IMG/VR virus record: IMGVR_UViG_3300020596_001154
Coordinates: 1 to 64,000 of that record
Source of the DNA: a virus
Length of the DNA stretch: 64,000 nucleotides
Strand: one strand, 5' to 3'
The position numbers were made by a program, and so were the translations under genes. Shown one piece after another: positions 20,683 to 62,261 of this stretch (position 1 is its first letter; each line of letters begins with the position of its first letter). The notes beneath the pieces were generated by a model that was not told the origin of the DNA, did not search any database, and saw only the letters and a program-made list of their open reading frames with translations.

Positions 20683-22806
20683 ATGGCTAACGTACACAAG
20701 TTTCAGCAGCCTGTTAGGGTAGGCGTCAAAGCTTCAGATCCAACAGGAGAACAAGGTCTCATATACTACAATTCAACGGACAACGTATTTAGAATACGGG
20801 ATGATGCCGGGTATGCTACTATTGCTGATAGATCGTTTCTATCAAGCACTTCCTCTGGAGAAGGTGCTTCCCAAATCGGTATTTTCGATACCGCAGCCAG
20901 TTTCACTTCAACTGACGTTGAAGGCGCTTTAGCAGAACTTTACACTTTAGCTTCTGCTGGTGGGTCAAGCACTTTTGCGGACAACTTATTCAGAGTTCAA
21001 GATAATGGTGATGCCAGTAAAGAAATTGAATTCTCTTTAGGTGGCGCTACTGCATCGACCAAGATGACTTTAGTCAGTTCTCAAACTGCTAATAGATCAC
21101 TTACTTTACCTAATACCACCGATACTTTAGTTGCTTTAGCATTGGCTCAAACTCTTACTAACAAGACTATAGACGCTGATTCAAACACTATTACTAACAT
21201 TGAAAATGCTGATATTAAAGCTGGTGCAGCTATCGACGCTGCTAAGATTCATGATGGATCAGTAAGTAATACTGAATATGGCTATTTGGATGGAGTCACT
21301 TCTGCTATTCAAACTCAATTAAATGCCAAACAAACTACTACTTTAACCGATGGAAACATCCTAGTAGGTAATGCATCTAACGTTGCTACTAGTGTAAACC
21401 CTTCCGGGGATGTTGATGTTTCGAATGCCGGAGTATTCTCGATCAGTGCTGGCGTAATTGTCAATGCTGATATTAATGCTTCTGCTGCGATTGACGCTGC
21501 TAAGATTCATGATGGATCAGTAAGTAATACTGAATATGGCTATTTGGATGGAGTCACTTCTTCTATTCAGACGCAAATCACAGCAAGAGCTTTAGACTCA
21601 GCTGTCATTAAAAAAGATGGTTCAGTAGCTTTTACAGCAGATCAATCGATGGGCGGCTTTAAGTTAACTAATCTAGCTGCTCCTGCAATTAACGGTGATG
21701 CGCTTCGATTTAACCAACTAGGTGCAAACAATGGTATTGCAACACTAGACGGTGGCGGAAAAGTTCCTGTATCTCAATTACCCAGTTCGATCATGACCTA
21801 CGAAGGTGTTTGGAATGCAACTACTAATAGCCCTGCCCTTTCTGATGGAACAGGAGACGCGGGACAAGTTTATAGAGTCAGTGTAGCGGGTTCCCAAAAT
21901 CTAGGATCAGGATCTATTTCATTTGATGTAGGAGACTATGCAATTTACAATTCTTCTGGAACATGGGAAAAGTCTGATACGACAGATGCAGTAGCTTCTG
22001 TTAACGGACAAACTGGAATTGTAGTTTTAGATGCCGATGATATTGCTGAAGGAACTAATGTATACTTCACAGATGAACGGGCTCAAGACGCAATTGGCGC
22101 AATGGTTGCAGATAGTTCAAAAGTATCGCTAACTTATGTTGATGGCACGCCTTCACTCACTGCAGATATTATTGCAGGATCTTTAGTGAATGCTGATATT
22201 AACGCTTCAGCAGCTATTGATGCCGCAAAGATCCATAACGGTTCAGTAAGTAATACTGAGTTTGCATATCTTGATGGTGTTACATCTGCTATTCAAACTC
22301 AATTAAACGCCAAGGTAACAGGCCCAGCTTCCGCAACTGACAATGCTATTGCTAGATATGACTCTACCACTGGAAAATTACTACAAGACAGTACTTCTAT
22401 ACTGTCCGATGCAGGTGGAATGACTATTGCTGATCTCTGGAGAAGAGGCGATGGAAACTTAACTAATTATGTAGAAGAAGAATATAACCATTCTCAGACC
22501 CTTACTGCATCTACTACTGCTGTAGCATCAGCATTTACATTTGACAGTACTGTAGTTAAAGCAATTACAATTGAGTACACCATTCTTTCTGGAAACGAAA
22601 GAAGAGTTGGAAAGATTATGGTTGTTGGAGACAATCTTGTTTCTGTAGCTTCAGGCGCAACAAGCTTAACTGACGAAATGAGTGAAACCGATGATGTTGG
22701 AGTTACCTGGACTGCCGCTCTTAATGGAGGTGATGTAGAGCTCAGCTATACGACCAGCGCCGGGGCTAAAACAATGAGATCTGATATCAAACGATATCTT
22801 GCCTAA
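20683..22806 (+). CDS. Tail fibre protein 1
   Basis: 707 residues, beta-rich. Three internal modules of the common fibre repeat occur: NADI-type segment, AAIDAAKIHDGSVSNTEYGY and LDGVTSAIQTQ, near residues 175-210, 260-295 and 500-540. An NGQTGIVVLDADDI ... TDERAQDAIG segment follows the widespread fibre pattern. The last about 100 residues are the same domain that is duplicated in the preceding protein. Likely trimeric host-binding fibre. Confidence 0.8.
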   Translation: MANVHKFQQPVRVGVKASDPTGEQGLIYYNSTDNVFRIRDDAGYATIADRSFLSSTSSGEGASQIGIFDTAASFTSTDVEGALAELYTLASAGGSSTFADNLFRVQDNGDASKEIEFSLGGATASTKMTLVSSQTANRSLTLPNTTDTLVALALAQTLTNKTIDADSNTITNIENADIKAGAAIDAAKIHDGSVSNTEYGYLDGVTSAIQTQLNAKQTTTLTDGNILVGNASNVATSVNPSGDVDVSNAGVFSISAGVIVNADINASAAIDAAKIHDGSVSNTEYGYLDGVTSSIQTQITARALDSAVIKKDGSVAFTADQSMGGFKLTNLAAPAINGDALRFNQLGANNGIATLDGGGKVPVSQLPSSIMTYEGVWNATTNSPALSDGTGDAGQVYRVSVAGSQNLGSGSISFDVGDYAIYNSSGTWEKSDTTDAVASVNGQTGIVVLDADDIAEGTNVYFTDERAQDAIGAMVADSSKVSLTYVDGTPSLTADIIAGSLVNADINASAAIDAAKIHNGSVSNTEFAYLDGVTSAIQTQLNAKVTGPASATDNAIARYDSTTGKLLQDSTSILSDAGGMTIADLWRRGDGNLTNYVEEEYNHSQTLTASTTAVASAFTFDSTVVKAITIEYTILSGNERRVGKIMVVGDNLVSVASGATSLTDEMSETDDVGVTWTAALNGGDVELSYTTSAGAKTMRSDIKRYLA
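21235..21303 (+). repeat. 69-bp direct repeat in fibre genes, copy 1
   Basis: Identical at DNA level with 21493-21561 and 23235-23303, from GACGCTGCTAAGATTC to GATGGAGTCACTTCT. It encodes the DAAKIHDGSVSNTEYGYLDG segment. A fourth, synonymously diverged version lies at about 22218-22290. Confidence 0.9.
21493..21561 (+). repeat. 69-bp direct repeat in fibre genes, copy 2
   Basis: Same sequence as 21235-21303, in the same gene and reading frame, 258 bases downstream. Recombination between the two would delete one fibre module in frame. Confidence 0.9.
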
Positions 22807-35311: not shown

Positions 35312-35498
35312 TGTTGTGATTTATAAATCACCTACAGGACTTCAGTATATAAAAGAAGATCATGGAACAAACCAACACCCTCCAGTAGTTTTGCTAAAAA
35401 GTATTTGGGAAGCCCTAGGCAAACACAAAGATTCTAAAGCAGCTTACAAGGCCTACCTAGCAGACAAGAAGGCATCAACAAAAGGAGAAACAAAGTGA
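35244..35498 (+). CDS. Hypothetical protein with a HEAT-array-like tail
   Basis: 84 residues beginning with TTG inside the end of the helicase gene; AGGGAGGAG lies eight bases upstream and fixes this start. The N-terminal 50 residues are unique. The C-terminus (LGKHKDSKAAYKAYLADKKA ... GETK) matches the end of the HEAT-repeat protein that follows. It therefore looks like a remnant or donor of that array. The ending AAAGGAGAAACAAAGTGA supplies the ribosome binding site of the next gene. Confidence 0.65.
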   Translation: MQKKTSAEKSGTKPIKELLQKFNVVIYKSPTGLQYIKEDHGTNQHPPVVLLKSIWEALGKHKDSKAAYKAYLADKKASTKGETK

Positions 35499-36805
35499 AC
35501 AAAGAATCGGAGATAAAGACAGCTGCTCTCATTAAAGCTCTCAAAGATAAAGATCGGGGTGTTCGCTTGTCTGCTGCCAAAGCCCTAAGCAATCACACAG
35601 ACTCTAAAGCTACCAACGCTCTCATTAAAGCTCTCGAAGATAAAAATCTACATGTTCGCTGGTATGCTGCCGTAGCTCTAGGCAAACACAAAGATTCTAA
35701 AGCTACCGATGCCCTCATTAAAGCTCTCAAAGGTAAAAATCTACATGTTCGCTGGTATGCTACCATAGCCCTAGGCAAACACAAAGATTCTAAAGCAGCT
35801 ACCGATGCTCTCATTGAAGCTTTCGAAGATCAAGATTCGGGTGTTCGCATGTCTGCTGCCAGAGCCCTAGGCAATCACAAAGATTCTAAAGCAGCTACTG
35901 ATGCTCTCATTAAAGCTCTCCGAGATGAAGATTGGTATGTTCGCAAGTCTGCTACCATAGCCCTAGGCACTCGCACAGATTCTAAAGCCGCTACCTATGC
36001 TCTCATTAAAGCTCTCGAAGATCAAGATTCGGGTGTTCGCTGGTATGCTACCATAGCCCTAGGCAAACACAAAGATTCTAAAGCCGCTATCGATGCTCTC
36101 CTTAAAGCTCTCAAAGATGAAGATCGGAGTGTTCGCTTGTATGCTGCCAAAGCTCTAGGCAAACACAAAGATTCTAAAGTTACCGATGCTCTCATTAAAG
36201 CTCTCGAAGATAAAGATTGGTATGTTCGCAAGTCTGCTGCCATAGCCCTAGGCAATCACAAAGATTCTAAAGCGGCTACCGATGCTCTCATTAAAGCTCT
36301 CGAAGATAAAGATTGGTATGTTCGCAAGTCTGCTATCATAGCCCTAGGCACTCGCACAGATTCTAAAGCCGCTACCGATGCTCTCCTTAAAGCTTTCGAA
36401 GATAAAGATTGGCATGTTCGCTGGTCTGCTGCCTTAGCCCTAGGCAATCACAAAGATTCTAAAGCTACCGATGCTCTCCTTAAAGCTCTCAAAGATGAAA
36501 ATCCGGGTGTTCGCTGGTATGCTATCGACGCCCTAGGCAATCACAAAGATTCTAAAGCCGCTACCGATGCTCTCCTTAAAGCTCTCGAAGATAAAGATCC
36601 GAATGTTCGCAGGTATGCTGCCATAGCCATAGGCAAACACAAAGATTTTAAAGCTACCGATGCTCTCCTTAAAGCTCTCAAAGATAAAGATTGGTATGTT
36701 CGCAGGTATGCTGCCAGAGCCCTAGGCAATTACAAAGATTCTAAAGCAGCACACAAGGGGTTCAATGCAGACGAGAAGGCTTTTAAAAAAGGAGAAACAG
36801 AATGA
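35495..36805 (+). CDS. HEAT-repeat protein with 13 near-identical units
   Basis: 436 residues built almost wholly of 13 repeats of 31-32 residues with the pattern DALIKAL-DxDxxVRxxAAxALG-H-DSKAA, typical of PBS-lyase-type HEAT repeats. These form a curved superhelix that binds proteins or nucleic acid. Repeats are nearly identical also at DNA level, pointing to recent expansion. Variable positions cluster at the turn (DW-Y, DS-G, NL-H), which would line one face. GTG start with AAAGGAG upstream and a GTGA overlap. No catalytic residues are visible; probably a scaffold or binding platform. Confidence 0.85.
   Translation: MNKESEIKTAALIKALKDKDRGVRLSAAKALSNHTDSKATNALIKALEDKNLHVRWYAAVALGKHKDSKATDALIKALKGKNLHVRWYATIALGKHKDSKAATDALIEAFEDQDSGVRMSAARALGNHKDSKAATDALIKALRDEDWYVRKSATIALGTRTDSKAATYALIKALEDQDSGVRWYATIALGKHKDSKAAIDALLKALKDEDRSVRLYAAKALGKHKDSKVTDALIKALEDKDWYVRKSAAIALGNHKDSKAATDALIKALEDKDWYVRKSAIIALGTRTDSKAATDALLKAFEDKDWHVRWSAALALGNHKDSKATDALLKALKDENPGVRWYAIDALGNHKDSKAATDALLKALEDKDPNVRRYAAIAIGKHKDFKATDALLKALKDKDWYVRRYAARALGNYKDSKAAHKGFNADEKAFKKGETE
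35519..36750 (+). repeat. Tandem 93-96-bp repeat array encoding HEAT units
   Basis: Thirteen direct copies with long identical stretches such as CACAAAGATTCTAAAGC and GATGCTCTCATTAAAGCTCT. Unit length alternates between 93 and 96 bases depending on one or two GCT codons at the unit junction. All copies keep frame, so copy number could change by recombination without breaking the gene. Confidence 0.92.
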
Positions 36806-44138: not shown

Positions 44139-44642
44139 GTGTTTAAAGTTTATCTAGTACAAGTATTTAACTTATTAATAGTAGTGCCAATTATCATAAT
44201 TACTGGACTAGGTGTGAATGCCTTACTCCCGAATGTAAATCAGGGAATTGTATTTGCTTTCACTGTGTTTCTCACAGCTGCCGTATTACTTGTTATCGAT
44301 GCAGCAACGGCAGAATTTATCAAGTGGAAGTCTATGAGGACACTAAAGCAATACGGGTTTAAGACTGCTGGGGAAGCAGAGAAAGTTATGAGAGACTACA
44401 CGGACTATCAGACACAGCTCTATCTCCTCCCACCTGAAGCTAAGAGAGAGATTATAGATAAGAGTAATAGAACTGAGCAGCTCATTAAAGATTATGAAGG
44501 AAGGCCCCCGTTCTTTTTCCAGAACTTAGGGATGACTAAAGAAGAAGCTATTGAACAAGTTAAGAATGATTGCACGACTTGGCTAAAGCAGAGAGGATAT
44601 CCAGTATGGGAATTTCCCCTAAAAAACCAGGACAAGTCGTAA
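44139..44642 (+). CDS. Two-span membrane protein
   Basis: 167 residues from a GTG. Two hydrophobic segments (about 4-29 and 36-58) are followed by a charged cytoplasmic domain of about 105 residues. Unusual among replication genes. It might tether DNA-processing proteins to the membrane, or be a cryptic lysis or exclusion gene. Overlaps the resolvase gene by 37 bases. Confidence 0.62.
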   Translation: MFKVYLVQVFNLLIVVPIIIITGLGVNALLPNVNQGIVFAFTVFLTAAVLLVIDAATAEFIKWKSMRTLKQYGFKTAGEAEKVMRDYTDYQTQLYLLPPEAKREIIDKSNRTEQLIKDYEGRPPFFFQNLGMTKEEAIEQVKNDCTTWLKQRGYPVWEFPLKNQDKS

Positions 44643-45325
44643 TAGGGTTAGACCTTTCTACTAAGCCGGGTTACGCAATCCTAGCTGACGGAGAAAGACT
44701 TGCCTCTGGGACTTCGAGACCCCCAAGCCCCCTGTCTAGTATGAAGGGTGAATACCCATTTACTTACGTAGGTTTTACCCAGTCTGTTGTTGAAAACTTA
44801 CTGTACAAAGTCATGACCCATATTCAGTTTTCTAAGTTACAGAATTCTGATGTAGATGTTATTGTGATTGAAGAGACAACTGCGAGTTCTCAAAACTACT
44901 CTCAAAAAATCTTAGAGTTTATTCACTATGAGTTTTTGAAGACAGTCACCGCTATATTCCCCGAAGCTAAAGTGGTCTATATACGTGATTTAGTTTGGAA
45001 AAAGGCCAATGATGCGCATATGAACGCTGAAGAAAAGAAAAATAATTTAAAGCTTAGTCGACTAAAGAAAAAGAAGGCGGAAGAAAATCCAAATCTGAAG
45101 AAGATTATAGTCAAGAAAGACACTGACGGAACCCCAATTAAAAAAGTATCCAGACAAGATGCTTACATAAGAAAAGCAAATGAAATATTCAGCTTAGATT
45201 TGAAATTAGAAAATGAGGACGAGGCAGCAGCGTTATTATTAGCGAGAGCTTATCTCACAGGCGCCCCCCATTGCAATGGGCGACTTGATGGAGGAGTATA
45301 TGTCAAAAAACCTGACGGGATTTAA
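44606..45325 (+). CDS. RuvC-like Holliday junction resolvase
   Basis: 239 residues of RNase H fold: first acidic residue in VIGLDLSTKPGYAI (about 11-24), second in VIVIEETTAS, and a C-terminal ENEDEAAALLLARAYL with the final acidic pair. It resolves branched DNA before packaging. A basic Lys-rich insertion (about 140-180) precedes the last motif. ATG 44606 with GAGAGG is preferred over a TTG at 44570. Confidence 0.82.
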   Translation: MGISPKKPGQVVIGLDLSTKPGYAILADGERLASGTSRPPSPLSSMKGEYPFTYVGFTQSVVENLLYKVMTHIQFSKLQNSDVDVIVIEETTASSQNYSQKILEFIHYEFLKTVTAIFPEAKVVYIRDLVWKKANDAHMNAEEKKNNLKLSRLKKKKAEENPNLKKIIVKKDTDGTPIKKVSRQDAYIRKANEIFSLDLKLENEDEAAALLLARAYLTGAPHCNGRLDGGVYVKKPDGI

Positions 45326-45443
45326 AATTAATACTTGGACATTTGAGTCTAAGTTCAACAAGTTACTCTGCAATGTTAGATGTTCTTGCGGACTTGTGTG
45401 GCAGCGCCAGGATAAAAACATTTTATATGGTAAATCAAACTGA
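45300..45443 (+). CDS. Small Cys-containing protein
   Basis: 47 residues starting inside the end of the resolvase gene, with a strong GGAGGAG five bases upstream. Contains CNVRCSCG, which could be half of a zinc knuckle. It ends inside the start of the resolvase fragment. Function unknown; the ribosome binding site argues that it is real. Confidence 0.45.
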   Translation: MSKNLTGFKINTWTFESKFNKLLCNVRCSCGLVWQRQDKNILYGKSN

Positions 45444-45735
45444 AAGGAAAAACAATGCAAAAATATCAAGGCTCAAAGCAAAGAAAAAAGCAACAAGCCC
45501 GGAAAAGAAACGGATTGTCATCAGGAAAGATAATGATGGCAACCCCATCAAAAGGGTTACTAGGCAAGATGCGTACATTCGTACTGCGAATGAGATCTTT
45601 GGCCTCGCGCTTACTCGCGAAAATGAGGACGAAACTGTGACGCTCTTAGTAGCAAAAGCTTATCTAATGGGCGCTCCTACCTACAACGGACTAATTACAG
45701 GAGGCCTGCTGCCCAAAAAAGGAGAAACAAAGTGA
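45427..45735 (+). pseudogene. Duplicated C-terminal fragment of the RuvC-like resolvase
   Basis: About 102 residues parallel the C-terminal part of the preceding resolvase: NNAKISRLKAKKKA, RQDAYIRTANEIFGL, ENEDETVTLLVAKAYLMGAP and YNG all align with it, but the first two catalytic regions are absent. The frame is intact, and the final acidic residues are kept. ATG 45427 is a weak start. An out-of-frame ATG at 45455 has a better ribosome binding site, so expression in this frame is uncertain. It may be a relic or a regulatory subunit. Confidence 0.6.
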
Positions 45736-48310: not shown

Positions 48311-48571
48311 ATGAAAGAACTAGATACGTTACAAGCCCGCTATGCAAAGGTTGCAGACCGAATCAAAGAGATTGAGTTGGAAAATGCAATGAAGAAGAAG
48401 AAGCTTCAAGAAAACCGAGATGAAATCGTCAAGTTAGGCTTCGACCCGGACAAGTTAGACACCCAAATCCCAGCCATCAAACAAAAAATCCAAGCACGTT
48501 TACAGGAGATTGAAGTTCAGGTAGATTTACTATATGTGGAGCTTGGGTTAGGCAATGAAAAACAAGGATGA
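48311..48571 (+). CDS. Hypothetical coiled-coil protein
   Basis: 86 residues, helical and charged throughout, with AAGGAA upstream. Contains a conserved-looking FDPDKLDTQ loop between two helices. Overlaps the protease gene by 17 bases. Function unknown. Confidence 0.62.
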   Translation: MKELDTLQARYAKVADRIKEIELENAMKKKKLQENRDEIVKLGFDPDKLDTQIPAIKQKIQARLQEIEVQVDLLYVELGLGNEKQG

Positions 48572-49388
48572 TCTAGAAAATTATCTCGTCTACGGGATTC
48601 ATATTCAGAATCGAAAGATATTCTTTGGATCTCCCATGACTTCAGAAGATGCTGATGATGACTTCGGATCTTGTTCTGTAGCCATGGCCATCAGAGCCAT
48701 TGACCTAATGGTCAGCATGAACTCCAAACCTATTGAATTACATATAACAAGTTCCGGTGGCCTCGTATACCACATGATGGGCCTTAAAGATAAGATGCTG
48801 GAGAGCCCAGTGAAGTTTATATTTTACGGACGAGGTCTTATATCTTCCGCTGCTACATGGATTCTTGCGTGTTCAGATGAACGTTACTTAAGTCAAGACT
48901 GTACTGTCATGATTCATAACGGGGGTACTCACCGAGAGAATGAGTCTGGTACTACACGAATGACAGACCAGACCATTGATACTGAAGAAGATGAGCGACT
49001 CCAAGACAGACTGAACCAAATTTTCAGCGACAATAGTAGAATGCCTAAAAGCTTTTGGGATACCATAGTTCAACGGGATTGTTATCTGACAGCTGAAGAG
49101 GCTGTTATGCTGGGTTTAGCGGATGAAATCATTCCCTATAAAAAGAGACTAAACCTAAGACAAAAACGACAGTCACTATTAAAGGCCCACCCCACTAAAA
49201 GGCAGATGGAATTACTGGCCAAGAAATTACTTGCGCGAGTTCGAATGAACCACATGGCTAAGGATGTGCAAGTACAACTTCCTGTGGAAGCAGCTGAGGA
49301 ACTTCCAGCATACGATAGATCAGAATTAGAACTAGAGAAACTTAATGGAGATGGTAATGGAATCAAAACTGAACCTACTGCAGAGTAA
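48555..49388 (+). CDS. ClpP-like serine protease
   Basis: 277 residues. The ClpP fold is recognised by ELHITSSGG (about 61-69), the nucleophile region GRGLISSAATWILA (S97), the catalytic His in VMIHNGG (H121) and QRDCYLTAEEAVMLGLADEI with the catalytic Asp. It has about 75 extra basic then acidic C-terminal residues. Phage ClpP-like enzymes often mature proheads, but this one sits in the recombination operon far from the capsid gene. No obvious unfoldase partner is adjacent; the MoxR gene at 57.3 kb is a remote candidate. Confidence 0.82.
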   Translation: MKNKDDLENYLVYGIHIQNRKIFFGSPMTSEDADDDFGSCSVAMAIRAIDLMVSMNSKPIELHITSSGGLVYHMMGLKDKMLESPVKFIFYGRGLISSAATWILACSDERYLSQDCTVMIHNGGTHRENESGTTRMTDQTIDTEEDERLQDRLNQIFSDNSRMPKSFWDTIVQRDCYLTAEEAVMLGLADEIIPYKKRLNLRQKRQSLLKAHPTKRQMELLAKKLLARVRMNHMAKDVQVQLPVEAAEELPAYDRSELELEKLNGDGNGIKTEPTAE

Positions 49389-51018: not shown

Positions 51019-52125
51019 TTATACATTCTCAATAGATTTTTGAGTTTGTTCTGGCAATACCTGACCACACTCAGTGCAAGTGCTTGATAAATCATGTATT
51101 TTATGCTGTAATTCTAGATATTCCTTCTTTATAACAGAAACATCATCATACTGAACGTTTTTGATCAATACCCTGTACTTCTCTAGGTCAGCCATAAGCT
51201 CAAGAGCCCTCATCAACTTAGAAGTATCTGGAATATCCTGTACTACCCTAGACCCAACTGCCTCCAGCAGCTTTATTAACCTACTAGGATCTTCTGGCCT
51301 CTTATAGTCTGGCGTTAGCTGGCAATACTCAGACAAGATTATCAATTTACTAGGGTTTTCCGGTCTACTAGGTAAAGGTGTTAGCTGGCAATACTCAGAC
51401 AAGATTATCAATTTACTAGGGTTTTCCGGTCTACTAGGTAAAGGTGTTAGCTTATACTGTCGATTACTCTCTATAAGCTCTTCCACTCTACTTAAGTCCT
51501 TTGATAGCTTCTCAATCTGTGATCGACTCTCTAGGATGCTCTGTAAGCGACTATTCAACCCTTCAGGGTCTCCTAGATCCACTAACTTAGTTTGGATAGC
51601 CTCACGGTCAATCTGGCGAATAGAGAGTGTAGATGCCATCTCTGAGCTATCCTTGGCTATTCGAGACTTAGCTGATTTAACCTTCCCTGCCTGGGATAGA
51701 GAGGAAAGCAGCTTAGAGACTTCAGAATCACTAAAAGATACAAGAAAGGGTGAATCCCATTGCTGTGAAATGTTTACGTAATATTTCTTTTTATCTACCT
51801 CAATAGGCTGGAAGCCTAGGTCTGCAATTTGCTGCAGTTGATCTCTGCCGATTGCCCGAAGCTCGGGGCCGCCATTAATTGAGTATCCTGTGCTTGAATC
51901 TCGTAAGTACTTGATTTTATTGCCGTCATCCAGCTCTAGTTCGATTTCCAGGCTTTTGGCACCATGTCTTATAAAGCTTTTAGAGGGGATATTATAAAGT
52001 AGGGTCTTAAAGGCACGTACAATAGCAGTCTTTCCTGATGAAGAGTGACCGACTATCACAGTAAAGGGCTGTATGTCTAATACAGACTCTTTGTGGCTCT
52101 GAAAGTTTTTAAGTGTTAGTTTCAT
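51019..52125 (-). CDS. Rad50/SbcC-like ATPase, N-terminal half with zinc-hook-like end
   Basis: 368 residues. N-lobe: KLTLKNFQSHKESVLDI, Walker A GHSSSGKT (about 26-33) and a Q-loop region near NISQQWDSPFLVSFSDS. Then a helical arm, a Pro-rich segment of three 22-residue repeats (about 228-293) and a C-terminal CTECGQ (C350, C353), like the apex of the Rad50 zinc hook. It stops just after the hook; Walker B and signature lie in the separate gene at 49357-49965. ATGA-coupled to a tiny ORF linked to the nuclease gene. Confidence 0.8.
   Translation of the reverse strand: MKLTLKNFQSHKESVLDIQPFTVIVGHSSSGKTAIVRAFKTLLYNIPSKSFIRHGAKSLEIELELDDGNKIKYLRDSSTGYSINGGPELRAIGRDQLQQIADLGFQPIEVDKKKYYVNISQQWDSPFLVSFSDSEVSKLLSSLSQAGKVKSAKSRIAKDSSEMASTLSIRQIDREAIQTKLVDLGDPEGLNSRLQSILESRSQIEKLSKDLSRVEELIESNRQYKLTPLPSRPENPSKLIILSEYCQLTPLPSRPENPSKLIILSEYCQLTPDYKRPEDPSRLIKLLEAVGSRVVQDIPDTSKLMRALELMADLEKYRVLIKNVQYDDVSVIKKEYLELQHKIHDLSSTCTECGQVLPEQTQKSIENV
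51314..51445 (-). repeat. 66-bp perfect tandem duplication inside the Rad50-like gene
   Basis: Two identical 66-bp units (51314-51379 and 51380-51445) plus seven bases of a third. Each encodes 22 residues including LTPLPSRPENPSKL. A diverged third unit (LTPDYKRPEDPSRL) follows on the protein side. The duplication is recent and in frame. Confidence 0.93.
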
Positions 52126-55796: not shown

Positions 55797-57077
55797 TCAC
55801 CAAGACTCGCCCTTCTTATTAGGCATATGGATAGTGACTCCATAGGGAGCTTTAGCCCTTGAGTTCATTACCCATAGACTCTGATAGGTCACAAGGTCTT
55901 TGTTTGGGAAGTCACCATAACCGTCTGTGAGCATGATTACAGCGTTAAACCGCCCTTCCAGGGCCTTCTCATGCACAGGCACGAAACTCGTGCCTCCTGA
56001 GGTTGATCTGGCCCGATGGAAGCCGTTGAATTTATAGTAGTTTGTAATCCTTGTATCAAAAGCAGCTACCCATATCTCTACACCTTGGCCATGGATCGCG
56101 TAGATCTCGTTCATTGCTTCCGCCCACTCACCATCTGTATAGGAGCCGGACTCATCAAGACCCACTAGGATCCTAAGCTTCGGCTGCTTCTTAAACCCTG
56201 GTAGTTCTCCTGGGAATCGTCTATTGACCTTCTTCCAGTTATTGTGGCGGTCTGTGGATATAAGGCTATGTACAAACTGTCTTAATATAGTAACCCAAGG
56301 CAAGGCTTTCTTCTTTTCAAGATCTACCATGAAGGCTGTGATCTCGCCTGGAAGGCGTCCTCTGGTTCGACTCTCAGCTTCTTTCAGAGCATTATACACA
56401 ATATTATCAACTAGATCTGGATCTTTTAGGCTTTCCTCAAAGTAACTGTGATCACTCTCAACAAGAGGACCACCACCACTTCCAGTGGAATTCATCCCGA
56501 GATTTTCCATCAACTCACTGTTCGATATAAGGGATATATAGTACTTGATCCAATCCTCGCCTTGTTTTTGGTCGAAAAATTCTGGGAATACAAAGCCACC
56601 ACTCTTAAGAATCTCTTCCAATTTACCAGACAACTCCTTTTTGGCGTCTTCTGTCTTAGCAGTCTTAATCTGGTCCATAACACCCTTAGCTGCCATTACA
56701 GTGCTAAGACCTTGTTTAGGATCATCTTTTAAGGCTTGGTTGAAGCTATTAATCTCTGCGTCTACCGCGTAGTTAAACACCATCATGTTAGCTGGCTTTT
56801 TGAGCTTCGAGGAATATTGTTCATGAGCTTTTTGCTGAAACTGTTGGATATGTCTTCGTACAATATGTTGGAATTCATGTTCAATTACGCCAGCTTGAGT
56901 CTTTAGAGGCATTTCAGAAAGCATCTTCTGATTCAGGACCATCTCTAAAGTGTTCTTGACTAGTACACAGGCTGGGTATTCGATCTTATTATCTACCCTG
57001 ATTTTGCAGCTTCTAAACAAGTTAGCATAGAAGGGGCTTCTTTTTAGGAGTTCAAACGCGATTTCATCGACAAACAT
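55797..57077 (-). CDS. Metallopeptidase-like/VWA protein (DUF2201 type)
   Basis: 426 residues. The N-terminal domain has a zincin motif HEFQH (residues 67-71) within VIEHEFQHIVRRH, followed by NYAVDAEIN, as in putative metallopeptidases joined to VWA domains. The C-terminal domain has a MIDAS-like LDESGS (about 305-310) and later VIMLTDGYGD. Such proteins act as substrate adaptors for MoxR ATPases, and a MoxR gene lies just upstream. GGAGGG lies before the ATG. Confidence 0.83.
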   Translation of the reverse strand: MFVDEIAFELLKRSPFYANLFRSCKIRVDNKIEYPACVLVKNTLEMVLNQKMLSEMPLKTQAGVIEHEFQHIVRRHIQQFQQKAHEQYSSKLKKPANMMVFNYAVDAEINSFNQALKDDPKQGLSTVMAAKGVMDQIKTAKTEDAKKELSGKLEEILKSGGFVFPEFFDQKQGEDWIKYYISLISNSELMENLGMNSTGSGGGPLVESDHSYFEESLKDPDLVDNIVYNALKEAESRTRGRLPGEITAFMVDLEKKKALPWVTILRQFVHSLISTDRHNNWKKVNRRFPGELPGFKKQPKLRILVGLDESGSYTDGEWAEAMNEIYAIHGQGVEIWVAAFDTRITNYYKFNGFHRARSTSGGTSFVPVHEKALEGRFNAVIMLTDGYGDFPNKDLVTYQSLWVMNSRAKAPYGVTIHMPNKKGESW

Positions 57078-57090
57078 ACACCCTCCAGCT

Positions 57091-57279
57091 TTAAAAATCG
57101 TAGGTCTTTTTAAGAACTACTTTCTTTTCTTTCCCGCATTTCACACAAGAAAGATTCCTCGTTTCGTGCAGAACTTGGGAGGTTCTAGAGCCATTTTGCA
57201 CTCTAGAAAAACCTCCCTTCTGCTTATATAGATGACGACATAAGGAGCGGCTCAATAGAAACATGAATCCAGTCCACAT
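57091..57279 (-). CDS. Small zinc-finger-like protein between MoxR and VWA genes
   Basis: 62 residues, starting at the last base of the MoxR stop codon (TAATG). The C-terminal NLSCVKCGKEKKVVLKK offers one CxxC and a basic tail; an additional Cys lies in the N-terminal half. It may be a bridging factor for the MoxR/VWA pair. Unrecognised. Confidence 0.5.
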   Translation of the reverse strand: MWTGFMFLLSRSLCRHLYKQKGGFSRVQNGSRTSQVLHETRNLSCVKCGKEKKVVLKKTYDF

Positions 57280-58577
57280 TAAACGCCCTTTTGAGCATTT
57301 ATAAAGGAGTCGATTTCAGAAGATTCTTCTTGAATTCTCCCATATAGGTTCATGTGAGTTGTAGAAACATTGCCCCATAGATATAGCATAACTAATTGAT
57401 GGGCGTTAGCTCTGTCTAGATTATCCTTCACAGAAGCTTCGTTAACGATGATCTTATGGGTCATATAGTTATACGAGAACTGATAGAAATAATCTTTAGG
57501 TAATTGACCTAAGAAGTCGATTAAATTCGAGAACTTAGTCTTATCTAGTAGTCGTTCAAAGTGTTCTTTTACTTCGGCAACTCTAACCTTTTTAAGCGTG
57601 GAATCTTCACTGTCGATATCATTTACGTAACCTGTAAAGGTTATTTGAGTTCTCAGTTTTTCAACTAAGCCAATGATTCCAGTCAATATAGTATTAACAC
57701 TCTGTGAGACTAGATCTTCTCGACCTTCTTTACGAAACTCAGCAAACTTAGTCTTATTCTGGTCCCAAGAATCGAACACATCTTCGAAAGATAGTGGCTT
57801 CTCTTGAGAGTCCATAAAAGCTAGATAACTTGCAGCTGCTTCTCTTCCTAAAGTCGAGGACAAGATATCACTAATGATCTCAGAGTCAGTTAATGACTTA
57901 GGATCAATAAGCTCGGCAGCTCTAAATAACTTAGACGCCATTTCCTGTGTTCTAGGCGTAGGTTCGATTGGAATGCCTGTCTCTAATTTCTTAGATAATC
58001 CCATATGTTCATTTTGAAATTCCATGAACCGTAATAAATCTTTATGGAAAATACCTGATTCTTTTCCGTATCTTAGAACTTCTTCAGCCTGAGGTTCAAA
58101 CGGAATGATAACAAATCGTTTAATAAAGGCAGAACTCATGACGTTAGCAGTGGTGTACTCAGAAGTACTAGGGTTAATAGCTGCTATGACTACTGAATCT
58201 TGGTGTAAATAGTGATTATGAACACGTTTCTCATACACTAATTGAAATAGAGCAGACTCTACATCTCTGTTGGCCTGATTCACTTCATCTAGGAAGAGTA
58301 CGATAGGGCCTTCTAGCATCCACTCAGGACGTGCCCACTTAGTGTTCTTCTCATTACTGTTAACTTTAGTGGATTCAACTAGGTAGGGGAGTCCGATAAG
58401 GTCTCCGATATCCTGTTGAGATGCCATCAACTTAATGACCGTATGGTTAGGTAGTATAGACTTGGCCGTCTGTTCAACTACAGCACTTTTACCAATCCCT
58501 GAATGCCCAATAAGCAATGCAGGAACGTTACCTTTCATGCAATACTCAAGTAGTCTTTGTGTTCTTTTGATATTCAT
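57279..58577 (-). CDS. MoxR-family AAA+ ATPase
   Basis: 432 residues. Walker A GHSGIGKS (about 24-31), Walker B VLFLDEVNQA, sensor 1 AAINPSTSEY and an AFIKRFVIIPF arginine-finger region are as in MoxR ATPases, which remodel proteins together with VWA partners. It forms an operon with the zinc-finger protein and VWA protein. AGGAGAG precedes the ATG. Possible jobs are virion maturation, host takeover or defence against other elements. Confidence 0.87.
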   Translation of the reverse strand: MNIKRTQRLLEYCMKGNVPALLIGHSGIGKSAVVEQTAKSILPNHTVIKLMASQQDIGDLIGLPYLVESTKVNSNEKNTKWARPEWMLEGPIVLFLDEVNQANRDVESALFQLVYEKRVHNHYLHQDSVVIAAINPSTSEYTTANVMSSAFIKRFVIIPFEPQAEEVLRYGKESGIFHKDLLRFMEFQNEHMGLSKKLETGIPIEPTPRTQEMASKLFRAAELIDPKSLTDSEIISDILSSTLGREAAASYLAFMDSQEKPLSFEDVFDSWDQNKTKFAEFRKEGREDLVSQSVNTILTGIIGLVEKLRTQITFTGYVNDIDSEDSTLKKVRVAEVKEHFERLLDKTKFSNLIDFLGQLPKDYFYQFSYNYMTHKIIVNEASVKDNLDRANAHQLVMLYLWGNVSTTHMNLYGRIQEESSEIDSFINAQKGV

Positions 58578-59255: not shown

Positions 59256-59416
59256 AAATCGCCCTTGATCTTTTTGATTGAAATAATTAGGTCATCCACA
59301 ATTAAGTCTGTACCTTCTGCCAGTTCTTGTCTAGACCAGTGACGAGTTTGTAGTTTCGTGTTGATCTCCACTTTTCCATCTTCAGAAGTTAAAATCGCTA
59401 TGTATTCTCTGCTCAT
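59252..59416 (-). CDS. Small hypothetical protein
   Basis: 54 residues, ATGA-coupled at both ends (to the lipoprotein gene before it and the 80-residue gene after it). Alpha/beta with HWSRQELAEGTDLIVDD. The double coupling supports it as real. Function unknown. Confidence 0.58.
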   Translation of the reverse strand: MSREYIAILTSEDGKVEINTKLQTRHWSRQELAEGTDLIVDDLIISIKKIKGDL

Positions 59417-59706
59417 TTAATGATCTCCGGCTTATCTTGTTTTGGAATAGCCCACTGCTTAAGTTCAAACTCTTCCATCTGACGGTTTAATCTGACATCA
59501 CAGTTTCTGAAAACGTGCACCATTCTATAAGTCTCGCCATCAGGAGCCTTGTTAATAATCTGGCCGCTCTCAATGCATACATTACCTTTTAAATTTACCA
59601 GGTATTGGTCTTTCTCTTTAAGAAAAAGCGTTGCGTTGACTGTCTTTGACGTGCAGGCACTCAAGAATATTAAAGTCAAAACCAATACTGCTAATAAGAT
59701 CTTCAT
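59413..59706 (-). CDS. Small lipoprotein
   Basis: 97 residues with a lipoprotein signal: MKILLAVLVLTLIFLSAC, lipobox LSAC, Cys18 as acylation site, so a Gram-negative envelope lipoprotein. The mature part has two further Cys (NVCIESG, FRNCDVRL) that could form a disulphide. Could be an outer-membrane spanin or an exclusion lipoprotein; no inner-membrane spanin partner is evident. Overlaps the upstream exported protein gene by one base. Confidence 0.75.
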   Translation of the reverse strand: MKILLAVLVLTLIFLSACTSKTVNATLFLKEKDQYLVNLKGNVCIESGQIINKAPDGETYRMVHVFRNCDVRLNRQMEEFELKQWAIPKQDKPEIIK

Positions 59707-59996
59707 TAAAAGTCAAATCCAACGCTTAGAAGTAAATTACCATTTGTGTGTGCCTCTACACCTAGAGCTACTTCGTCAGAAACTTTTCTTTCGTAGCCAA
59801 TGCCGCCTACTGCACCTCTATTGATAGAGATTGTATTGGCATTATGGTTAAGCTCATTGTTAGGTCCAATACCGAATAAGCCTCGAATCCTATTCTTCTT
59901 AGAAGCTGAAGACTTCTCAGCCTGAGCGGATTCGTTTGCAAAGGTATCGCCCATTAATGGCGTAGCTAAAAGTATTAAAATCAAAAATAGTTTCAT
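59706..59996 (-). CDS. Exported small outer-membrane-like protein
   Basis: 96 residues. The signal peptide ends around residue 20 (LLATPLMGDTFA). The mature part has short strands and ends in LLLSVGFDF, with the terminal Phe typical of BAM-recognised barrel proteins. With only about four strands it cannot form a barrel alone. AAAGGAG precedes the ATG. Possibly a fragment or oligomeric surface protein. Function unknown. Confidence 0.6.
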   Translation of the reverse strand: MKLFLILILLATPLMGDTFANESAQAEKSSASKKNRIRGLFGIGPNNELNHNANTISINRGAVGGIGYERKVSDEVALGVEAHTNGNLLLSVGFDF

Positions 59997-60007: not shown

Positions 60008-60709
60008 TTATGGTTGGAATACATTTCCAAATTGGTCGGTTAGAACGTTTGAGTTGTTTACACTAAATGAACAGCCAGAGCCATCAGTCGTGGTGAAACT
60101 CCCAGCAACTAGTTTGCTTAGACGTACTGTGAGTGCGCTGCCATTTTGGGAGAAGGAACTCACTAGACTGCCATTTTCAAGTCTTAGAATAACTTCTCTG
60201 AAAGCTGTTACAATACTGGGACAAGGAGTGATTAACTCTTTGATTTGATACTGTGATGAACTTCCTGGAACTCCTTGATTACCCTGAACTCCTTGATCAC
60301 CCTGAACTCCTTGATCACCCTGAACTCCTTGATCACCCTGAACTCCTTGATCACCCTGAACTCCTTGATCACCCTGCTGGCCTTCGTTTCCATCACATAC
60401 GACACTTGCGCTTGTGACTTCAGAATCTTGTAGACTACCATCTCTGTTAAGGTCTGGTCCTGACTTAATAAGGGCCCCCGATTCAGATGTACAGACGCTA
60501 GAATCTGCAGTAAATCTTGCAGAACTAATGAGGCTGTTTTTACCACTAGAGCCATCTAACCCATTTACTCCTGCAGCTCCTGCAGCTCCTTGAAGCAGGG
60601 TGTAGGTTTCGTCTCCACATCCTACTAAAAATAGGGTTGCCGATGCACAAACAGCGGAAACTAAAATTAATTTTGCTGCTCCGTACATTACTAGTTTAAC
60701 TGGGTCCAT
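60008..60709 (-). CDS. Collagen-like lipoprotein
   Basis: 233 residues. Signal with lipobox LVGC (Cys about 31). A short GAAGAAGVNGLDGSSG run precedes a SGPDLNRDGSLQDSEV segment with two Cys (calcium-loop-like, seen in deltaproteobacterial surface proteins). Then a Gly-x-y tract with five GDQGVQ units, and a beta-rich C-terminal domain with two Cys. It is likely displayed on the outer membrane of the infected cell. It looks like an acquired host-type gene; a role in surface masking or superinfection exclusion is a guess. Confidence 0.75.
   Translation of the reverse strand: MDPVKLVMYGAAKLILVSAVCASATLFLVGCGDETYTLLQGAAGAAGVNGLDGSSGKNSLISSARFTADSSVCTSESGALIKSGPDLNRDGSLQDSEVTSASVVCDGNEGQQGDQGVQGDQGVQGDQGVQGDQGVQGDQGVQGNQGVPGSSSQYQIKELITPCPSIVTAFREVILRLENGSLVSSFSQNGSALTVRLSKLVAGSFTTTDGSGCSFSVNNSNVLTDQFGNVFQP
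60268..60375 (-). repeat. 18-bp tandem repeat encoding the collagen-like tract
   Basis: Six copies of GAACTCCTTGATCACCCT (first with one change, GATTACC). Each encodes six residues, so copy number can vary by slippage without frame loss. Confidence 0.92.
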
Positions 60710-60805: not shown

Positions 60806-61306
60806 CTATTTAAAATTAATCCTAAGTCCACCTATAAAAAATGTTACCACATAGTTTGAGTTAGCGCCAGCCTCTATAGAAATATTCTTCGTGATAGGAA
60901 TGTCTACATAAGCGTTGGCCACTACTGTGGGTACAATCTCTACCACACTATTTCTAATAGACCCTGGAAATTTGTCTACTTTGTTAGTAGTTTCACGTAC
61001 ATAGAGTCCGGCAGCTGCTCCCAAATGTAGGTGTGAAAAATATGTCCACACTGGACCGGCCATCAACGTACCAGCATTTTTACCGAACGAGTCTTTAAAG
61101 TACACTGCAGCACCTTGGAAATTCTTATGGCGGTAAAGGAAGCCCAAAGCTGGGTGAAAGGTCCAAGTCCCATCTTCAGATAGTTTATAAGGCATGGCAT
61201 CTCTAACCGTATCATCCACATTCAGAATCCCATGCAATGTTACTGCTACTGGACTGATTGTCAGCGAGTGGCCTATAACTGCTGCGTATAGTAGAACTGA
61301 AATCAT
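60806..61306 (-). CDS. Predicted exported beta-barrel-like protein
   Basis: 166 residues. A short hydrophobic N-terminus (MISVLLYAAVIGHSLT) may serve as signal. The rest alternates hydrophobic and polar residues with many Gly, Tyr and Phe (LGFLYRHKNFQGAAVYF, GAAAGLYVRE) and ends IGGLRINFK, as in small outer-membrane barrels. No enzyme motif. Starts directly after the KTSC gene stop. Confidence 0.58.
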   Translation of the reverse strand: MISVLLYAAVIGHSLTISPVAVTLHGILNVDDTVRDAMPYKLSEDGTWTFHPALGFLYRHKNFQGAAVYFKDSFGKNAGTLMAGPVWTYFSHLHLGAAAGLYVRETTNKVDKFPGSIRNSVVEIVPTVVANAYVDIPITKNISIEAGANSNYVVTFFIGGLRINFK

Positions 61307-61525
61307 TTATTTCTCGATTTTAGTATAAGAGTAGCCACCGTTTCGGACTCTTTTAAAGAAGAAGCTCCCTTTAGATTCTGCAGACTGGAAGTCTTCATAT
61401 ATATCTAGAGGCACATCCTTATATTGATAGACAATCCCGCTTTTAAAGCGTACTTCTAAAACCTTCTCGGTTTTCTTATACCCAATAGAGGCAATATTTG
61501 TTGAATCGACAGCAGTTCTTCTCAT
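61307..61525 (-). CDS. KTSC-domain protein
   Basis: 72 residues matching the KTSC family: VDSTNIASIGYKKTEKVLEV then FKSGIVYQYKDVPLDIYEDF and A-S-K-G-SFFFKRVR. The domain is found in phage and bacterial proteins, sometimes fused to nucleic-acid enzymes; its exact function is unknown. ATGA-coupled to the PilZ gene, with GGGAGAA upstream. Confidence 0.8.
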   Translation of the reverse strand: MRRTAVDSTNIASIGYKKTEKVLEVRFKSGIVYQYKDVPLDIYEDFQSAESKGSFFFKRVRNGGYSYTKIEK

Positions 61526-61929
61526 ATAGAGGTTCTCCCTTTGTTCATTTCATTTAGTATTCGCGTGGCTACAGCTGAAATCTGTTTGTTTCTGAGATAT
61601 ACGCAATAAGCAGATAGAATTTGAGTGTGACTTTTTGTCATTGCATCAAATACACAGCTAAAGCCGAGGTCTTTTTTCAGCTTCTTTTTAGTAGAAGCCC
61701 AGTTCACGAACTTAACTTTACCCTTAAGTTTTAGAAGACCTAATCCTGCCGGCAATTCGAAAGTAACTTCTATTGGAGTATTTGGAAGTAGAAGCTCTTC
61801 ACTATATATGAAGACTCCTTTTGAAGAGATATCCCTCAAATTTTTATTCATATAGGAGTCATCTAATAATTTAAGAGTGGCTCTTTCAGATATTAACGGT
61901 ATGCGAATTTCACTTCGTCGTTCTTTCAT
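61522..61929 (-). CDS. PilZ-domain protein, predicted c-di-GMP binder
   Basis: 135 residues. Both halves of the PilZ ligand signature are intact: RxxxR in RRSEIR (R5, R9) and DxSxxG in RDISSKG (about 33-38), followed by beta strands FELPAGLGLLKLKGKVKFVN as in stand-alone PilZ domains. A helical C-terminus (about 100-135) is an add-on. It would bind host cyclic di-GMP and alter motility, adhesion or life-cycle decisions, or sequester the messenger. Cytoplasmic. Overlaps both neighbours by four bases. Confidence 0.8.
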   Translation of the reverse strand: MKERRSEIRIPLISERATLKLLDDSYMNKNLRDISSKGVFIYSEELLLPNTPIEVTFELPAGLGLLKLKGKVKFVNWASTKKKLKKDLGFSCVFDAMTKSHTQILSAYCVYLRNKQISAVATRILNEMNKGRTSI

Positions 61930-62261
61930 TTTGTTATCCCTCTCGTAACCTTATTGAAGTTTACGTATTCATATGTATAGTAGTCACCAGCTTTAGGATC
62001 ATTCAAGTATTCAGCCTCTGAAATATTTTCCCCGTCCGCTCTACTATAGCCGGTCACTTGCTTGATTTCCCCTTCAATATCTAGGCTAACTCCACTTAGA
62101 GAGATGCCTCTAGTTTGCGCAAAGATTTCCAAGGCTTTTTCAATTGCTTCTTCTTCGGAGTGTGCTTTCACTTCAATAGGCTCTAAGTTAGTTCCACAGT
62201 TAAGGCCATTAACGCTATCGCAATCTATGCCGTGGTAGGGGGTAATCGTATATAGGTTCAT
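61926..62261 (-). CDS. Hypothetical protein
   Basis: 111 residues, acidic, with AHSEEEAIEKALEIFAQT, an element seen in small phage proteins with a beta-helix-beta fold. Coupled by ATGA to the PilZ gene and to the gene before. No function inferred. Confidence 0.62.
   Translation of the reverse strand: MNLYTITPYHGIDCDSVNGLNCGTNLEPIEVKAHSEEEAIEKALEIFAQTRGISLSGVSLDIEGEIKQVTGYSRADGENISEAEYLNDPKAGDYYTYEYVNFNKVTRGITK

What the first reader, a model, noticed from the sequence alone, without database searches (positions are those of the whole stretch)
61522..61929. Phage-encoded PilZ protein with intact c-di-GMP signature
RxxxR and DxSxxG are both present with proper spacing, followed by the expected beta strands. 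PilZ proteins are bacterial c-di-GMP receptors controlling motility, polymer secretion and, in predatory bacteria, life-cycle switches. A phage-borne copy beside envelope proteins suggests interception of host second-messenger signalling.
Basis: partly seen in the sequence, partly recalled or inferred. Interest (0 to 1): 0.66.

Follow-up and report, generated by a model that had tools for sequence, protein, structure and literature searches.

The report
Phage gene for a PilZ receptor
An uncultivated tailed phage carries, tightly packed among its own genes, a small protein of the bacterial PilZ family with every sequence feature needed to bind the bacterial messenger molecule c-di-GMP; such proteins are ordinary in bacteria but no other phage copy was found in the collections searched, so it may be a tool for hijacking host signalling, which remains untested.

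Summary
The minus-strand ORF at 61522-61929 (135 aa) is a single-domain PilZ protein: Pfam PF07238 E=1.7e-7, 32 bits against a cut-off of 22.5, matching profile positions 1-100 of 102. It keeps the full c-di-GMP signature RxxxRhxh (R5-R9, RSEIRIPL) and DhSxxG (D33-G38, DISSKG). The motif pair alone is not significant in this window; the whole-domain match is. The contig is a 64,847-base IMG/VR virus record from a myovirus with terminase, capsid, sheath, baseplate and replication genes. The pilZ gene overlaps both neighbours by 4 bp, has a good ribosome-binding site and phage-like codon usage, so it is not an obvious host fragment. It shares a run of small genes with a KTSC protein, two predicted lipoproteins and two predicted exported barrel-like proteins. 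No PHROG family matches it or 18 bacterial PilZ domains, and no credible phage copy turned up in INPHARED or IMG/VR, but those DNA-level scans are insensitive. Binding and target are untested; host and structure are unresolved. Most likely it is a c-di-GMP-dependent effector on host motility or surface machinery; a c-di-GMP sponge is the main rival. "Interception of signalling" is plausible but unproven.

The parts
61522..61929 (-). Single-domain PilZ protein, 135 aa; c-di-GMP motif R5-SEI-R9-I-P-L and D33-I-S35-S-K-G38
   Evidence: Pfam PF07238 E=1.7e-7, 32 bits > 22.5; independent profile 33.6 bits; hhalign 96.4%; motif
61307..61525 (-). KTSC-domain protein, 72 aa, start overlaps the pilZ stop by 4 bp
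   Evidence: Pfam PF13619 E=6e-21; related short proteins in Vibrio, Caulobacter and Colwellia phages; overlap
61926..62261 (-). 111-aa protein of unknown family; its stop overlaps the pilZ start by 4 bp
   Evidence: no Pfam match; overlap
60806..61306 (-). 166-aa predicted exported protein (hydrophobic N-terminus; beta-rich, barrel-like by eye), starts directly after KTSC
   Evidence: sequence; no family match
60008..60709 (-). 233-aa predicted lipoprotein (LVGC) with DUF7151 domain and collagen-like GDQGVQ repeats
   Evidence: Pfam PF23657 and PF01391; 18-bp tandem repeat x6
59706..59996 (-). 96-aa predicted exported, barrel-like protein ending in F
   Evidence: sequence; weak OMP_TP0733 match E=0.006, below cut-off
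59413..59706 (-). 97-aa predicted lipoprotein (LSAC)
   Evidence: sequence
57279..58577 (-). MoxR-like AAA ATPase of a phage family, marks this arm as phage
   Evidence: phrog_1297 E=1e-43
55797..57077 (-). DUF2201 metallopeptidase/VWA-like protein of a phage family
   Evidence: phrog_1314 E=3e-47; Pfam PF13203, PF09967

Best explanation
The gene encodes a stand-alone PilZ-domain c-di-GMP receptor carried by a myovirus. Shown by sequence: complete PilZ domain, intact c-di-GMP signature, phage genome, tight packing among phage genes. Inferred: during infection the protein is made with its neighbours, binds host c-di-GMP through R5/R9 and D33/S35/G38, and the loaded form docks on a host machine that PilZ proteins commonly control (flagellar motor, type IV pilus or polysaccharide export), shifting the infected cell's surface or motility state. 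Together with the co-encoded predicted lipoproteins and exported proteins it would help lock the cell surface, for example against superinfection.
For: Pfam, profile and hhalign support for PilZ. The motif fits the extended form RxxxRhxh/DhSxxG quoted from Galperin and Chou in PMC8203827. Size and domain-only layout match MotL (144 aa), a stand-alone PilZ that regulates the lateral flagellar motor. Profile relatives of solved structure include the c-di-GMP receptors Alg44, YpfA/MotI and VCA0042. Ribosome-binding site, 4-bp overlaps on both sides and codon usage in the range of the phage's own genes argue for a kept, expressed gene. Precedents for phage interference at this node: YIP peptides raise c-di-GMP through YfiN (PMC9145820); Zip acts through the host PilZ (PMC11656802).
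Against: No binding or phenotype data. No target-binding extension beyond the domain other than a C-terminal stretch of about 25 residues. No orthologue in any other phage found, so conservation of the binding residues in phages cannot be shown. Host unknown. The right arm of the contig (beyond 45.3 kb) is covered by one assembly only. No confident structure.
Confidence: 0.45

Rival explanations
1. c-di-GMP sponge: the protein's job is to soak up a cyclic dinucleotide, either c-di-GMP to collapse host signalling or a related CBASS/STING-type signal, rather than to act on a target.
For: Small, single-domain, complete binding signature; phages use sponge proteins (Acb2, Acb4, Tad1, Tad2) against nucleotide signals and Acb4 arose from a common bacterial domain (PMC11722364).
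Against: Acb4 does not bind housekeeping c-di-GMP, which suggests sponges avoid it; no defence-related context beside the gene; PilZ proteins usually signal on to a partner.
Confidence: 0.27
2. PilZ adaptor that acts on a host partner without c-di-GMP, the motif being a relic.
For: Several bacterial PilZ proteins, such as the type IV pilus PilZ itself, work as adaptors (PMC11656802); no phage orthologues exist to show the motif is under selection.
Against: All motif residues including the flanking hydrophobic positions are kept, unlike non-binding PilZ proteins, which typically lose the arginines (established knowledge).
Confidence: 0.13
3. Passenger or artefact: recently captured host gene with no phage function, or an assembly chimera joining host DNA to the phage.
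For: Single assembly for this arm; no match to the right-arm genes tested in other viral contigs.
Against: Phage-family genes on the same strand nearby, gene overlaps throughout the arm, phage-like codon usage, no bacterial housekeeping gene seen.
Confidence: 0.1

Closest known systems
MotL of Shewanella putrefaciens (stand-alone PilZ; PMC8203827)
   Same: Domain-only PilZ of about 140 aa with intact RxxxRhxh and DhSxxG
   Different: Bacterial, encoded beside motAB; target system known. Here the gene is in a phage and the target is unknown
Alg44 PilZ domain (PDB 4rt0, 4xrn)
   Same: Best solved-structure match of the PilZ profile that includes this protein; c-di-GMP receptor fold
   Different: Part of a membrane alginate polymerase complex, not free-standing; the single phage sequence alone finds no PDB match
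YIP peptides of PB1-like Pseudomonas phages
   Same: Phage-encoded, perturb host c-di-GMP signalling
   Different: They bind the cyclase YfiN and raise c-di-GMP (PMC9145820); this is a receptor-type domain
Zip of Pseudomonas phage JBD26
   Same: Phage protein at a PilZ node, affects surface structures and superinfection
   Different: Zip binds the host PilZ protein (PMC11656802); it is not described as a PilZ domain
Cyclic nucleotide sponges Acb2, Acb4, Tad1, Tad2
   Same: Small phage proteins that bind nucleotide second messengers
   Different: Described as structurally distinct families; Acb4 does not bind c-di-GMP (PMC11722364)

Membership tests
PilZ domain family (PF07238) | Full-length match above curated cut-off | tested here: met
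   32 bits vs 22.5, profile 1-100 of 102; hhalign 96.4%
PilZ domain family (PF07238) | Six-stranded beta-barrel fold with C-terminal helix | tested here: inconclusive
   Single-sequence AlphaFold2 model pLDDT 36, uninformative; no admissible homologues for an alignment
c-di-GMP-binding PilZ receptor | RxxxRhxh motif near the N-terminus | tested here: met
   R5 S E I R9 I10 P11 L12
c-di-GMP-binding PilZ receptor | [D/N]hSxxG motif after the first strand | tested here: met
   D33 I34 S35 S K G38, aligned with 18 bacterial PilZ domains
c-di-GMP-binding PilZ receptor | Measured c-di-GMP binding | not testable with these tools
   needs purified protein
TIGR02266 (Myxococcus/Geobacter paralogous PilZ type) | Score above curated cut-off 68.7 | tested here: not met
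   22.4 bits, partial match
YcgR/FlgZ/MotI flagellar brakes | N-terminal YcgR domain before PilZ | tested here: not met
   PilZ begins at residue 3; no other domain
Phage cyclic nucleotide sponges (Acb/Tad) | Match to a known sponge or defence-related family | tested here: not met
   only PilZ in Pfam, no PHROG, no PADLOC model
Phage sponge (function) | Sequesters the signal in infected cells | not testable with these tools
   needs infection or expression experiment

The most novel reading that the evidence does not exclude
A phage has turned a PilZ domain into a counter-signalling tool: a phage-made c-di-GMP receptor or sponge, expressed with surface proteins, that overrides the host's c-di-GMP programme or absorbs a cyclic-dinucleotide defence signal. 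As far as the searches here show, it would be the first PilZ-based phage effector.
Probability: 0.3. Interest if true: 0.72.

Novelty: new member of a known kind. Interest (0 to 1): 0.42.

Why it matters
PilZ proteins are the classic c-di-GMP receptors of bacteria. Phages are known to disturb c-di-GMP through other means (YIP, Zip), but no PHROG family matched any of the PilZ domains tested and no described phage-encoded PilZ receptor was found in the papers held. A functional one would show that phages read or soak up the messenger directly and would link surface control, superinfection exclusion and nucleotide signalling in one operon.

Tried and rejected
Only relative from the bacterial genome scan (L016, Ktedonobacterales) is an Hsp70 gene sharing NTPIEVTFEL, not PilZ. 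Profile and pattern scans for PilZ in viral contigs: 34 and 3 pattern matches, none confirmed; the three pattern records have no PilZ. YcgR as control hit one unannotated 2.3-kb 'phage' record at 71%, probably host DNA. Single-sequence fold failed; a second fold with alignment was not run, because the only PilZ homologues in hand came from a source outside those the tool names as admissible. Promoter and terminator matches at background level. Sample names gave no paper.

Full report
What is there. The minus-strand ORF at 61522-61929 starts with ATG and gives 135 aa. Pfam assigns a nearly full-length PilZ domain, E=1.7e-7, 32 bits against a cut-off of 22.5. I built a profile from 18 bacterial PilZ domains taken from genomes in the phylum of L016 (Ktedonobacterales), found by PF07238 and aligned without the phage protein. 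It scores this protein 33.6 bits, the next best of 326 window ORFs 4.5, and 2000 shuffles at most 10.7. hhalign gives 96.4% for this protein and 1.5% for the neighbouring ORF. The signature is complete: RSEIRIPL fits RxxxRhxh and DISSKG fits DhSxxG, the forms quoted in PMC8203827.

Is it phage? The window is part of a 64,847-base IMG/VR virus record. It carries a terminase, a major head protein, a tail sheath, baseplate proteins, an endolysin-domain protein, a DNA polymerase, DnaB-like and other helicases and a UvsX-like recombinase, so it is a myovirus distant from named phages. Near-identical contigs from other metagenomes cover the left part: one is colinear from the window start to base 45,340, another adds 4.9 kb beyond the window start, so the record is not the whole genome. 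The right arm with pilZ is seen in one assembly only; scans with four right-arm proteins found no second copy. Against a chimera: phage-family genes (phrog_1297, phrog_1314) lie a few kb away on the same strand, many genes along the arm overlap by 1-4 bp, and pilZ codon usage is in the range of the phage's own genes.

Context. pilZ overlaps the upstream 111-aa gene and the downstream KTSC gene by 4 bp each and is preceded by GAGAGGGATAACAAAATG. Next come a predicted exported 166-aa protein, a predicted lipoprotein with DUF7151 and collagen-like repeats, a 96-aa predicted exported protein and a second predicted lipoprotein (signal features read by eye). This suits a module that alters the cell envelope and suggests a diderm host, but the host is not established.

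How unusual. No PHROG family matches this protein or any of the 18 bacterial PilZ domains. No phage or plasmid record matched by tblastn, nor did PA4608 match a phage; YcgR matched only one unannotated 2.3-kb record. Scans of viral contigs gave no confirmed relative. These scans miss distant PilZ proteins, so rarity is likely but not proven. Literature searches found phage interference with c-di-GMP or with host PilZ (YIP, Zip) but no phage-encoded PilZ receptor.

Mechanism. Shown: domain, motif, phage context. Inferred: c-di-GMP binding (about 85% likely in my judgement) and biological role. I favour an effector acting on host motility or surface machinery (0.45), as domain-only PilZ proteins such as MotL do, over a sponge (0.27), a ligand-independent adaptor (0.13) and a passenger or artefact (0.10). 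The structure could not be tested: the single-sequence model has pLDDT 36.

Verdict. A real PilZ gene in a real phage, a new member of a known protein family in an unusual place. The signalling-interception idea is reasonable and testable, not demonstrated.

Noticed in passing
35495-36805 (+): 436-aa protein made almost entirely of about 13 similar 32-aa HEAT (PBS-lyase-type) repeats, encoded by a 96-bp tandem array at 84% matches, lying between a helicase and the DnaB-like gene; looks like recent repeat expansion in a phage.
   Followed up: partly
44570-45325 and 45343-45735 (+): Adjacent genes share a stretch (about 67% DNA identity over 165 bp), which looks like a partial tandem gene duplication.
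   Followed up: no
48555-49388 (+): ClpP-like protease (PF00574, E=7e-20) in the replication/recombination region rather than the head module.
   Followed up: no
55797-58577 (-): MoxR-like AAA ATPase plus DUF2201/VWA metallopeptidase-like pair in a phage.
   Followed up: no
60268-60376: 18-bp tandem repeat x6 coding GDQGVQ collagen-like repeats in a predicted phage lipoprotein with DUF7151.
   Followed up: partly
51314-51452 (-): Perfect 66-bp tandem duplication (2.1 copies, 100%) inside the SbcC-like gene, very recent or an assembly effect.
   Followed up: no
L004:11651-16565: 4.9 kb beyond the window's left end in a second assembly, with repeat-containing tail-fibre-like ORFs; the record G000 is therefore incomplete.
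   Followed up: partly
20683-22806 (+): Putative tail protein with a segment up to 72% identical to minor tail proteins of Gordonia phages although the rest of the phage looks unrelated to them; likely domain exchange.
   Followed up: no
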